Source of the DNA: Pseudomonadales bacterium
GTDB taxonomy: Bacteria; Pseudomonadota; Gammaproteobacteria; Pseudomonadales; Azotimanducaceae
Length of the DNA: 64,000 nucleotides
NCBI GenBank assembly: GCA_028281005.1
Contig: JANQKS010000052.1
Span: forward strand, 1-64,000
Direction: 5' to 3'
Below the pieces are notes generated by a model. That model was not told where the DNA came from. It made no database searches and saw nothing but the letters and a program-made list of their open reading frames with translations. Position 1 is the first letter of the stretch; the number at the start of each line of letters is the position of its first letter. The position numbers were made by a program, and so were the translations under genes. This document shows positions 31,267-34,562 of the stretch, one piece after another.

Positions 31267-33159
31267 ATGTTGCGCGTAGAGAACCTCACATTTCGCCGCG
31301 GTCCGGATGTTCTATTTGAACGGCTGAGTTTTGTAGTGCACGCCGGACAACGGGTCGCCATTGCCGGGCGCAACGGCGTGGGTAAATCCACCCTATTTAA
31401 CCTGGTGTTAGGAGCGCTTCACGCCGATACCGGTGAGCTCGACATGCCCGAAGGCTGGCGCGTGGCGCACATGCAGCAAGAGGTGAAAGTCACCCAACGG
31501 CCGGCGCTAGAGTTTGTCGTTGACGGTGATGTGCGCCTGCGTGAAGTGGAAGCGCAAATCGAACGTGGTGGAGAAGCGCATCAACAGGCTGCGCTGCATG
31601 CCCAATTTGACGACCTCGACGGCTACAGCGCGCACGCCAGAGCCGGTGAAATTCTGCACGGCTTAGGATTTGCCGAACCAGACTTCCCTAAACCGTATGC
31701 AGCTTTTTCCGGCGGCTGGCGCATCCGCTTACATTTGGCTCAGGCGCTGATGAACCCCTGTGATTTGCTGTTGCTTGACGAGCCCACCAACCACTTAGAC
31801 CTCGAAGCCATCATGTGGCTAGAAGGCTGGCTGGCTCGTTTCCCGGGGACCGTGCTGGTGATTGCCCACGACCGCGCGTTTCTCGACGCCTGCACCGACC
31901 ACACGCTGTATCTCTCCCAACAATCCGGACGCATGTACACCGGCAACTACTCCAGTTGTGAACGCCAACGCGCCGAATACATGGCGCAGCAACAGGCGTT
32001 GCGTGCCAAACGCGATGCCCAGGCTGCGCACATCCAGAAGTTTGTCGACCGCTTCCGAGCCAAAGCCAGCAAAGCCAAACAGGTGCAAAGCCGCATCAAA
32101 GCGCTGGAGCGTCTACAGGAAGCGGCGATCATCGCTTCGGACTCACCGTACACCGTGCACTTCCAGGATCCGGACAAAGTCTCCAATCCGTTATTCTCCA
32201 TCCGCGATGTTGAGCTGGGTTATGAGGGACAAGCCGTCCTCAAACAAATCAACTTGTCGATCCTGCCCGGCGACCGCATTGGCGTTCTCGGCGCCAACGG
32301 CGCCGGCAAAAGCACTTTGCTGAAATCTCTGGTCGGCGAGTTGACCCCCCTGACCGGTGAGCTCAACAAAGGACAACACTGCGAAGTGGGCTACTTCGCC
32401 CAACACCAGCTGGAGACCCTCAACTCAACGCAGTCACCCTTACCGATGTTGGCAAACGTCAGGCCCGCCTGGCGCGAGCAGCAATGCCGCGACTACCTCG
32501 GCCGTTGGGGGTTTGATGCGGGTATGATCGAACGCCCCATCGCCACCCTGTCCGGCGGTGAAAAGGCGCGCCTGGTGCTGGCCCTGATCGCGCTGGATAA
32601 ACCCGCCATCCTGGTGTTGGACGAACCCACCAATCACCTGGATTTGGACATGCGCGATGCGCTGGCGTTCGCCCTGCAAGACTACGCCGGCGCCGTGGTG
32701 ATCGTCTCCCACGATCGCATCCTGCTGGACAAAACTGTGGATGATTTCTGGGTCATCGAGCACGGTGCGGTGAACGTGTTTCACGGCGACCTGCAGGACT
32801 ACACCACCGCGCGCAAAACCTCGCTGCAGAAAAGCCCATCCACCGACGCGGCCAACGGCACTGCCAACAACCCTTCTCGCAAAGCCGCGCGCCAAGACCG
32901 CGCGCGACAGAGAGAATCGCTGCGGGACCTACGCAACGCGGTCAAAAAATACGAACGCGAGATGGACCAGCAAAGTGAGCAACTCAAAGAACTGGAAGCG
33001 CGCTTGGCGGATACAGACACCTACCAAGCAATGGCGGCGGATGAGTTAGACGAGTTGTTGGCGAAGGCGGGGAAGTTGCGGGGGCGGTTGGAGGAGACCG
33101 AAGAACACTGGCTCTCGGCGGTGGCGGAACTCGAGGCCGCGGATGAAACAGCAAATTGA
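31267..33159 (+). CDS. yheS: ABC-F family ATPase YheS
   Basis: The 630-residue soluble protein has two ABC domains: the first with GRNGVGKST (34-42) and LLLLDEPTNHLDLEAIMWLE, the second with GANGAGKST, TLSGGEKARL and LVLDEPTNHLDLDMRD. Between them is the charged linker (PtIM) of ABC-F proteins, and the C-terminus is a coiled coil of about 80 residues. No transmembrane partner is present. ABC-F proteins act on stalled ribosomes; YheS is the likely orthologue by domain layout. It is followed by the structured repeats at 33180-33568. Confidence 0.92.
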   Translation: MLRVENLTFRRGPDVLFERLSFVVHAGQRVAIAGRNGVGKSTLFNLVLGALHADTGELDMPEGWRVAHMQQEVKVTQRPALEFVVDGDVRLREVEAQIERGGEAHQQAALHAQFDDLDGYSAHARAGEILHGLGFAEPDFPKPYAAFSGGWRIRLHLAQALMNPCDLLLLDEPTNHLDLEAIMWLEGWLARFPGTVLVIAHDRAFLDACTDHTLYLSQQSGRMYTGNYSSCERQRAEYMAQQQALRAKRDAQAAHIQKFVDRFRAKASKAKQVQSRIKALERLQEAAIIASDSPYTVHFQDPDKVSNPLFSIRDVELGYEGQAVLKQINLSILPGDRIGVLGANGAGKSTLLKSLVGELTPLTGELNKGQHCEVGYFAQHQLETLNSTQSPLPMLANVRPAWREQQCRDYLGRWGFDAGMIERPIATLSGGEKARLVLALIALDKPAILVLDEPTNHLDLDMRDALAFALQDYAGAVVIVSHDRILLDKTVDDFWVIEHGAVNVFHGDLQDYTTARKTSLQKSPSTDAANGTANNPSRKAARQDRARQRESLRDLRNAVKKYEREMDQQSEQLKELEARLADTDTYQAMAADELDELLAKAGKLRGRLEETEEHWLSAVAELEAADETAN

Positions 33160-33179
33160 GTTTTTCGATTAGTCCGGCA

Positions 33180-33367
33180 TCAGCTCGTTCTGATTAATCA
33201 TCTTTCAGTCTACCGGAGCGATGTTCGGTTATGGTTTACGGGACCGCCGTGAACCCATCCATGGGGGCTGGCGCTGCGCCGTCCATGGCGCAGAGCCTCC
33301 CGTAAACCATAACCGAACATCGCTCCAAGCTAACCTTACTGACGGTGAAGTCAGCAGAACGAGCTGA
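33180..33367. repeat. Outer inverted repeat enclosing cassette A
   Basis: TCAGCTCGTTCTG (33180-33192) and CAGAACGAGCTGA (33355-33367) are perfectly complementary and surround cassette A at about 22 and 28 bases distance. Together with the inner arms they give a nested hairpin of about 190 bases in the gap between the convergent yheS and PDZ genes. Confidence 0.75.
33215..33326 (-). repeat. Structured cassette A: 29-base perfect arms around a conserved 54-nt core
   Basis: The arms 33215-33243 and 33298-33326 are perfect reverse complements over 29 bases. The 54-base core (33244-33297), read on the minus strand, has two hairpins: GCGCC/GGCGC with loop ATGGAC (33276-33291), and CCC/GGG with loop ATGGAT (33254-33265). 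The core matches that of cassette B at 43 of 54 positions, in opposite orientation. The whole would fold as a three-way-junction-like structure on a long stem. Confidence 0.85.
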
Positions 33368-33474
33368 CGCCTGTAGAACCCATGGATCACGTTGCCGGTC
33401 GTTTCGGCCTCTCCTTCCTGCTGATGAGGCCTGACCGCGAAACCACCGATACTCGGAACAACGCAGGCCTGGAG

Positions 33475-33568
33475 TCCGGTGTGCTGATTCAGGAGGCTCT
33501 GCGACAGGGATGTCGCAGCGCCAGCGTCCATGGATGGACTTGCAGCGGTCCTGAATCAGCACACCGGA
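33475..33568 (+). repeat. Structured cassette B: 20-base perfect arms around the same 54-nt core
   Basis: The arms 33475-33494 and 33549-33568 are perfectly complementary over 20 bases and extend imperfectly ~10 bases further out (GGCCTG pairs again). The sequence of these arms is unrelated to cassette A. The 54-base core (33495-33548) holds hairpins GCGAC/GTCGC with loop AGGGAT (33501-33516) and GTCC/GGAC with loop ATGGAT (33526-33539). Differences from cassette A inside the stems are compensatory. Confidence 0.85.
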
Positions 33569-33599
33569 TTTCAGGCCGGTAGCTACTGATCTCTGTCTG

Positions 33600-34562
33600 T
33601 CAGTCTTTGACCACCTCAACATCCTCACTCACTCGTATTACCCGCTTGACCATCTGTTCGGCAGCGCCGCTCAAATCATCAGGCTGCACGGTCACGGTGC
33701 GTTTGCGGCCATGGCGTTTGATTTGGGCTTCGGTGTCACCTTCAATATTGTCGAGCAGGTGGGCGGCTTGTTCGAGATTGGAGATGGTGTTACCGGCAAT
33801 GTTGAGCAAGACGTCGCCGGGTTGAAGTTCAGAGGAGTCCGCGACGTGGTGCACGATCACACCCTCATCAACATCAAAGTACTTGGCCAGGGGGCCGCTC
33901 ACGGACATCAAAGCGTGTTTGCTGGAGCTGTGCTGAACCCACACTTGGCGTTCGATATGAGGGAGGTCCACAACCGCGGCGGAAAGGTCTGAGCCCAGCT
34001 CTTTTAGGTCTATGGTCAAACTGCCTAAATCCAGCGCTTTTTCACCGAGCTGTTCATCCAATAGGGTAATCATGTGTACTGCGCGAGCCTGGGTAGTCAC
34101 GGTGGTTTCCACCGGTTCCCCGTCACGCAGATAGAACACGGTGACATCATCGCCGGCGGCCACATTTTGCATCACCTTGGCCAATGCTTTGCGCGGATGC
34201 GGATCTTCTTCTACCGAAACGCCGCTAATGGCAACGATACGGTCGCCGGCTTGGAGCCCCGCCGCTGCGGCGCCGCCACCGGGGGTCACGCCAACTATCT
34301 GCAGGCCGCCCTGCTCGTCGTGACCGTCTAACAAGACACCCAACATGGCTTTATTGCTGTTGCTGCCGAGGGCATATTTTTTGGTGTGTAAACTGGCGAG
34401 TTCCCGTGCGGCCGCATCAATTTGCTGGCGCGCGCGCTCAATCTCCACCTCAATTTCTTCGACAATTTCGCGCTGCTCGGCGGCGCTGATCACCTGCTCC
34501 GCCTCGGCAAAGGTATAGAGGTTGATCAGCAACAGCGCTGCCACCACAAGCGTTTTGTACAT
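33600..34562 (-). CDS. Exported double-PDZ-domain protein
   Basis: The 320-residue protein has a signal peptide (cleavage near TFAEA, residue 21), a charged helix at ~24-62 (REIVEEIEVEIERARQQIDA), PDZ1 at ~68-155 (GVTPGGGAAAAGLQAGDRIV) and PDZ2 at ~225-290 (GVIVHHVADSSELQPGDVLL). No protease domain is present, so it is probably a periplasmic binding or adaptor protein. It lies two bases downstream of the anti-sigma-like gene and belongs to the ECF operon, making it the likely envelope-stress effector or sensor partner (inference). Confidence 0.8.
   Translation of the reverse strand: MYKTLVVAALLLINLYTFAEAEQVISAAEQREIVEEIEVEIERARQQIDAAARELASLHTKKYALGSNSNKAMLGVLLDGHDEQGGLQIVGVTPGGGAAAAGLQAGDRIVAISGVSVEEDPHPRKALAKVMQNVAAGDDVTVFYLRDGEPVETTVTTQARAVHMITLLDEQLGEKALDLGSLTIDLKELGSDLSAAVVDLPHIERQVWVQHSSSKHALMSVSGPLAKYFDVDEGVIVHHVADSSELQPGDVLLNIAGNTISNLEQAAHLLDNIEGDTEAQIKRHGRKRTVTVQPDDLSGAAEQMVKRVIRVSEDVEVVKD

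What the first reader, a model, noticed from the sequence alone, without database searches (positions are those of the whole stretch)
33215..33568. Two structured cassettes sharing a 54-nt core with compensatory changes but unrelated perfect arms
Cassette A (33215-33326, minus strand) and cassette B (33475-33568, plus strand) have cores of exactly 54 bases that agree at 43 positions in opposite orientation. Each core folds into two hairpins with 6-base loops (ATGGAC or AGGGAT; ATGGAT). In hairpin 1, C-G of A becomes A-T in B at the same paired positions; in hairpin 2, C-G becomes T-A and an unpaired C/T becomes G-C. Such covariation indicates selection on a folded RNA or single-stranded DNA. 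The arms are perfect (29 and 20 bases) but have no sequence in common, so pairing of the arms matters and their sequence does not. Placement between convergent genes suggests a role in 3'-end formation, an RNA element, or a mobile hairpin that copies arms from its target.
Basis: seen in the sequence. Interest (0 to 1): 0.78.

Follow-up and report, generated by a model that had tools for sequence, protein, structure and literature searches.

The report
Dispersed double-hairpin CsrA-type RNA repeats
Two near-copies of a small folded RNA element, each holding up two loops that look like docking sites for the global regulator CsrA, belong to a known but little-studied RNA family that is scattered in tens of copies through this and many other gammaproteobacterial genomes.

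Summary
In detail: two 54-nt cores agree at 43 positions in opposite orientation, with perfect arms of 29 and 20 bp. It is not a two-copy curiosity: the genome has 41 strong copies, and 68 of 370 sampled gammaproteobacterial genomes have the element. Rfam has this family as TwoAYGGAY (RF01731); cassette A scores 42.8 bits against a cut-off of 43, two other copies in this genome pass. CsrA binding was predicted for it in 2014. New here: a high-copy dispersed repeat, mostly in head-to-head pairs (31 of 35), with arms whose two sides change together and G-U over A-C pairs 66:16 on the GGA strand, pointing to selection on RNA of that strand. Binding, transcription, function and mobility are not shown. 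Placement between convergent genes is not general (9 of 30).

The parts
33215..33326 (-). Cassette A: whole element (arms plus core), GGA strand is minus
   Evidence: R1 place C37:33198-33343 minus; RF01731, 42.8 bits
33298..33326 (-). Cassette A, 5' arm of the GGA strand (29 bp, perfect)
33215..33243 (-). Cassette A, 3' arm of the GGA strand (29 bp, perfect)
33244..33297 (-). Cassette A core, 54 nt, two hairpins
33281..33286 (-). Cassette A, loop of hairpin 1 (ATGGAC)
   Evidence: read; loop conservation
33257..33262 (-). Cassette A, loop of hairpin 2 (ATGGAT)
   Evidence: read
33475..33568 (+). Cassette B: whole element, GGA strand is plus
   Evidence: R1 place C37:33449-33594 plus; RF01731, 38.5 bits
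33475..33494 (+). Cassette B, 5' arm (20 bp perfect; 33466-33494 at 93%)
33549..33568 (+). Cassette B, 3' arm (20 bp perfect; 33549-33577 at 93%)
33495..33548 (+). Cassette B core, 54 nt, two hairpins
33506..33511 (+). Cassette B, loop of hairpin 1 (AGGGAT)
   Evidence: read
33530..33535 (+). Cassette B, loop of hairpin 2 (ATGGAT); GGA to GGA distance in B is 24 nt
   Evidence: spacing in relatives
33327..33474 (.). Spacer of the head-to-head pair; the 5' flanks of both GGA strands face each other here
   Evidence: no sigma-70 promoter-like site found in 33100-33650

Best explanation
Each cassette is an RNA element of the TwoAYGGAY kind (Rfam RF01731), read from the strand that carries the GGA loops. 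A long helix of largely free sequence closes a junction that presents two hairpins with A-N-GGA-N loops, 23-24 nt apart. One CsrA/RsmA homodimer most likely bridges the two loops. With tens of copies in intergenic regions, in UTRs or read-through transcripts, the elements would together be a distributed set of CsrA docking sites that titrate CsrA or bring it to particular transcripts. In a head-to-head pair, read-through from either side carries one sense (GGA) copy. Shown: fold, covariation, loop conservation, spacing, strand bias of wobble pairs, copy number, head-to-head pairs, Rfam match. Inferred: transcription, CsrA binding, titration, and how the copies spread (duplication of, and conversion between, copies).
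For: Both loops read C-A-(N)-GGA-N-G in the alignment of 30 copies while stems vary with compensation. Hairpin 1, which was not in the scan pattern, has A[N]GGA in 84 of 92 elements against 0.18 expected; GGA spacing is 23-24 nt in 83 of those 84. SELEX consensus RUACARGGAUGU, GGA in six-base loops, and bridging of sites 10-63 nt apart (best above 18) are the published CsrA features (PMC7652899, passages); 10 of 150 elements hold the exact consensus, 50 hold ACANGGANGU. G-U 66 against A-C 16 in arm pairs on the GGA strand, P 2e-8, not explained by base skew of the flanks. All 26 RF01731 matches in the genome fall on element places. csrA in 9 of 9 element genomes of the near set and 67 of 68 of the class sample.
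Against: No binding, expression or phenotype data. 6 of 30 copies lie between divergent genes and 4 of 15 tandem copies are antisense, so not all can be 3'-UTR elements. The csrA association is confounded: in the near set the genomes without csrA are all 3.4 Mb or less, and csrA is common (324 of 370) in the class sample; G243 has the element and no csrA match. SELEX sites mostly had four or fewer pairs, very stable stems seeming unfavourable, whereas hairpin 1 has ten pairs. R1 contains the loops, so loop counts on R1 matches are not wholly free of bias. Most copies score below Rfam's cut-off.
Confidence: 0.6

Rival explanations
1. A selfish or passively spread palindromic repeat (REP- or MITE-like). 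The fold is kept for its own spread, and the host gets no CsrA-related function from it.
For: Patchy occurrence (9 of 58 near genomes, 68 of 370 in the class), high copy number, head-to-head pairs as in REP dimers (PMC3733652 passages), identical arms and cores at two loci of one genome, losses at orthologous sites. Eight of nine other element genomes have a Y1 transposase match, seven over the cut-off.
Against: No Y1 transposase in the own genome or in G025. No clean empty site or target duplication seen. The strand-specific G-U excess and the fixed CsrA-like loops and spacing ask for an RNA-level reason. Spread and CsrA binding are not exclusive.
Confidence: 0.25
2. An RNA processing or 3'-end element: the long helix is an RNase III substrate, a decay barrier or a terminator, and the GGA loops are incidental.
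For: Intergenic in all 30 copies examined, 9 between convergent genes, 11 sense in tandem; perfect long helices; RNA-strand signature.
Against: No T-run at the arms. Six of 30 copies are between divergent genes. A plain helix would not need two invariant loops at fixed spacing.
Confidence: 0.1
3. A DNA element: cruciform or single-stranded hairpin recognised by a recombinase or replication factor, with arms kept equal by template switching.
For: Arms are nearly always Watson-Crick (1833 of 1950 cells, pairs 6-18). At orthologous sites changes hit both sides more often than one (33 against 12 in 300 pair comparisons, not independent).
Against: G-U exceeds A-C on the GGA strand (66 to 16), which a DNA-level process would not produce. 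Loop sequence fits an RNA-binding protein.
Confidence: 0.05

Closest known systems
TwoAYGGAY RNA (Rfam RF01731, clan CL00106); Weinberg et al. 2010 (PMC2864571), CsrA prediction in PMC4333381
   Same: Outer helix, two hairpins, A-Y-GGA-Y loops; cassette A aligns over the full model at 42.8 bits, two copies of the genome pass the cut-off of 43.
   Different: Most copies stay below the cut-off (24 of 26 matches).
CsrA/RsmA-sequestering sRNAs (CsrB/C, RsmX/Y/Z, RsmU)
   Same: GGA in hairpin loops, meant to bind CsrA dimers (PMC7652899 and PMC7694677, passages). RsmU is cut from a 3'-UTR.
   Different: Those are single genes with several GGA motifs; here one core holds two and there are tens of copies.
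REP elements and BIMEs (GTAG and CGTC super-families)
   Same: Intergenic palindromes in many copies, often as inverted dimers (PMC3733652, abstract and passages).
   Different: REPs are single 20-40 bp hairpins with an unpaired tag; here two hairpins on a 20-29 bp arm of variable sequence.
Ysr224 (RF02770)
   Same: Its model matches the antisense of cassette B at 36.4 bits.
   Different: Cut-off 70 bits, strand opposite to the GGA loops; not followed further than a listing.

Membership tests
TwoAYGGAY (RF01731) | Score at or above Rfam's gathering cut-off | tested here: inconclusive
   Cassette A 42.8 and B 38.5 bits against 43; 2 of the genome's copies at or over it (44.5, 43.0); all 26 matches at E <= 1 fall on element places. 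14 loci of relatives: none at the cut-off. 12 other element genomes: 6 with E <= 0.001, 4 over the cut-off.
TwoAYGGAY (RF01731) | Two terminal loops AYGGAY | tested here: met
   A: ATGGAC and ATGGAT. B: AGGGAT (G at the Y place) and ATGGAT. In relatives A[N]GGA in hairpin 1 of 84 of 92.
TwoAYGGAY (RF01731) | Outer closing helix with covariation | tested here: met
   26 of 29 arm pairs with a change on both sides.
CsrA/RsmA-binding RNA | GGA in hairpin loops, two sites 10-63 nt apart | tested here: met
CsrA/RsmA-binding RNA | Binds CsrA in vitro or in vivo | not testable with these tools
   csrA present in the genome, two genes; binding itself not testable.
CsrA/RsmA-binding RNA | Transcribed from the GGA strand | not testable with these tools
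   Indirect: G-U 66 to A-C 16. No sigma-70-like promoter in 33100-33650.
REP (GTAG or CGTC) | Single 20-40 bp palindrome with an unpaired GTAG or CGTC tag | tested here: not met
   Two hairpins plus arms, no common tag: GGAGGC in this genome, other letters in relatives.
REP (GTAG or CGTC) | Y1 transposase (RAYT) partner in the genome (GTAG type) | tested here: inconclusive
   None in the own genome; 8 of 9 other element genomes have a match, G025 none. Association with elements not examined.
Intrinsic terminator | G+C-rich stem followed by a T-run | tested here: not met
   No such site at the long arms; one weak 6-pair site at 33212-33229.

The most novel reading that the evidence does not exclude
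A dispersed repeat family whose conserved part is a CsrA-dimer docking site: tens of copies per genome, multiplied by duplication and conversion, form a distributed CsrA sponge, so that a mobile or semi-mobile repeat has been wired into a global post-transcriptional regulator across many Gammaproteobacteria.
Probability: 0.35. Interest if true: 0.8.

Novelty: new variant of a known kind. Interest (0 to 1): 0.55.

Why it matters
TwoAYGGAY RNA has had a predicted link to CsrA since 2014; the passages that I read report no test. Finding it as a high-copy, paired, intergenic repeat with a strand-specific RNA signature gives natural copies in genera such as Marinobacter and Microbulbifer where gel shifts or CsrA CLIP would settle the question. 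If true, repeats that look inert would be part of the Csr network and their copy number a way to tune CsrA. The arms are also a clean natural case of helices whose sequence is free while their two sides change together.

Tried and rejected
REP with a GGAG tag: considered because the core begins GGAG; dropped, since there are two hairpins and relatives lack the tag. Spread by a RAYT: no Y1 transposase in the own genome or G025, but matches in 8 of 9 other element genomes, so not excluded elsewhere. Clean empty site and target duplication: four sites compared in three Stenotrophomonas genomes; at sites 1 and 2 the genome without the element keeps a piece of one arm, sites 3 and 4 did not align usefully; the loss in G063 also keeps a piece, and in G066 the locus holds other sequence. 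Arms copied from the target: not supported. Intrinsic terminator and sigma-70 promoter: not found at the elements apart from one weak terminator-like site. Comparison at the window's own locus: in same-genus genomes most matches are to the ABC gene part of the query, none aligns the intergenic stretch apart from copies of the element itself. I first took arms with few wobble pairs as a sign of a DNA element; the counts then showed G-U well over A-C on the GGA strand, so I dropped that. Outer inverted repeats around seven of 30 copies were seen and not explained. Arm length: mean pairing fades between 20 and 29 pairs, but a looser per-element measure spreads from 18 to 40, so 'fixed length' is too strong. 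Literature searches in the held open-access library gave no description of this family as a dispersed repeat; the additional files of the TwoAYGGAY paper and subscription papers were not seen.

Full report
WHAT IS THERE. They hold all perfect inverted repeats of their kind in the window and fold far better than shuffles. They lie between a gene for a protein with two ABC ATPase domains (31267-33159, plus) and one for a PDZ-domain protein (33600-34562, minus), which converge.

COPIES. Cassette B as a DNA query found 30 copies over the core and a few partial ones in the same genome. A covariance model (R1) built from the 30 found 41 strong places in the 5.1-Mb genome (one cut by a contig end) and three weak or partial ones; the other 11 of its 55 matches are opposite-strand shadows. 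Among 58 genomes of the nearest set, the own one included, 9 have it, with 4 to 50 matches, shadows counted. In a class sample 68 of 370 genomes have it at E <= 0.001; there at most 8 candidates per genome were scored, so copy numbers are floors. Twelve Stenotrophomonas genomes gave 36 to 96 blastn matches each to a 1.8-kb stretch that holds a pair; these include both orientations and other repeats in the spacer, so they are not element counts. In three 400-kb stretches of such genomes R1 gave 37 matches, 27 of them elements and 10 shadows.

STRUCTURE. On the alignment of 30 copies 95.0% of cells form standard pairs, against 68.7% when shuffled and 30-41% when slid; 32 of 45 pairs have changes on both sides, in the arm helix 26 of 29. 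For a wider set, 221 aligned matches were cut to 198 by removing duplicates, to 188 by length, to 171 with a clear arm and to 150 on the GGA strand. In these 150 the arm pairs are 88-100% Watson-Crick up to the 20th pair from the core, 79% at the 21st and 35% at the 30th, so the arm is on average about 20-29 bp; a looser per-element measure spreads from 18 to 40.

LOOPS. The loops, not the stems, are the fixed part. In the 30 copies both read C-A-(N)-G-G-A-N-G while the stems around them change. In 92 elements from 64 loci that were fetched with a pattern for hairpin 2 only, hairpin 1 has A[N]GGA in 84, against 0.18 expected from shuffles, and the two GGAs stand 23-24 nt apart in 83 of these 84. 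R1 itself holds the loops, so this set is not wholly free of bias. These are known features of CsrA/RsmA sites: SELEX consensus RUACARGGAUGU, GGA in a six-base hairpin loop, bridging of two sites 10-63 nt apart, best above 18 nt (PMC7652899, passages). Against it: SELEX hairpins mostly had four or fewer pairs, whereas hairpin 1 has ten.

RNA STRAND. In arm pairs 4 to 20, oriented by the loops and scored without favouring wobble pairs, 157 distinct arm pairs hold 66 G-U, 16 A-C and 73 other non-pairs (P = 2e-8 for G-U against A-C). An A-C on this strand is a G-U on the other, so the excess says that the GGA strand is the one that pairs as RNA. Base skews of the flanks run the other way (GC skew -0.10, TA skew -0.05), so a mutational bias of that strand does not explain it. 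A first count with a score that favoured wobble gave 82 to 14. In the core stems of the 30 copies the counts were 10 G-U and 17 A-C, most of the latter at one pair of hairpin 2 that I probably drew wrongly (16 of 29 not paired there).

KNOWN FAMILY. Rfam's TwoAYGGAY (RF01731) aligns to cassette A over its full length at 42.8 bits, 0.2 below the cut-off, and to cassette B at 38.5. All 26 matches of that family in the own genome fall on R1 places, and two reach the cut-off. Fourteen loci of relatives gave none at the cut-off; of 12 other element genomes 6 have a match at E <= 0.001 and 4 one over the cut-off. So Rfam's cut-off misses most of these copies. CsrA binding was proposed for TwoAYGGAY from motif matches (PMC4333381, passages). 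The original list gives it as a probable RNA of human gut, gammaproteobacteria and Clostridiales (PMC2864571, one passage). Other papers only mention it (PMC11701678, PMC11661157, PMC7657543; passages).

CSRA IN THE GENOMES. csrA is present in 32 of 58 near genomes and in all 9 with the element, and in 324 of 370 of the class sample; by my reading of the two lists it is in 67 of the 68 with the element, G243 being the exception (P 0.003 and 0.0006). In the near set the genomes without csrA are all 3.4 Mb or less while element genomes of that genus are 4.4 Mb or more, so size and kinship are confounded with csrA. In the class sample some genomes of 1.3-1.9 Mb have both.

PAIRS AND PLACES. Neighbouring elements with a gap under 600 bp stand head to head, GGA strands reading outward, in 6 of 7, 17 of 20 and 8 of 8 cases in three sets; the last two sets overlap in at least one pair and the third counts orthologous sites more than once. 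Read-through from either side then carries one sense copy. Of 30 copies in the own genome (of 41), none lies in a called gene; 9 are between convergent, 15 between tandem (11 sense, 4 antisense) and 6 between divergent genes, by a simple codon-bias gene finder. Direct triple arrays with a period of about 230-260 nt occur in G026 and G046.

HOW THE ARMS CHANGE. At orthologous sites of three Stenotrophomonas genomes, 300 arm-pair comparisons (15 pairings of elements, not independent) show 33 with both sides changed and 12 with one side changed. At one site the 52-nt core is identical while 6 of 20 arm pairs differ on both sides; at others core and arms differ together, which suggests replacement by another copy; two loci of one genome share the same arms. 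Conversion between copies or fast compensation would both do; my data do not separate them. Two sites that lack the element, and a loss in G063, keep a piece of one arm, so they look like losses. The spacer of one pair holds GTAG-type palindromes (named by eye).

VERDICT. The best reading is an RNA repeat of the TwoAYGGAY kind that offers a CsrA dimer two loops on a stem of free sequence. Kinship with the family is well supported, CsrA binding is likely but untested, function and spread are open.

Noticed in passing
window 33493-33626 minus: Sub-threshold match of Rfam Ysr224 (36.4 bits, cut-off 70) to the strand opposite cassette B's GGA loops; the Yersinia sRNA family may overlap a relative of this element.
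   Followed up: partly
window 33176-33209 and 33338-33371: An outer imperfect inverted repeat (74%) encloses cassette A; seven of 30 copies have outer inverted repeats of 9 bp or more at varied distances.
   Followed up: partly
G000 copies, flanks just outside the arms: Weak asymmetric motifs, about CTTGGnnAACnnnnAGG 5' and CCGAnTCGATCGAAA 3'; in Stenotrophomonas CTGTCGAAGGC and GCCATCCC instead.
   Followed up: partly
L071 (G026:C56) and L068 (G046:C27): Three direct copies in a row with a period of about 258 and 232 nt, unlike the usual head-to-head pairs.
   Followed up: no
L117 2344-2940 and orthologous loci: GTAG-type palindromes (REP-like, named by eye) sit in the spacer between the two elements of a pair.
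   Followed up: no
own GTDB genus, G001-G036: csrA is missing in 26 of the 37 genomes placed in the window's genus, the own one included in the 37, all of them small.
   Followed up: no
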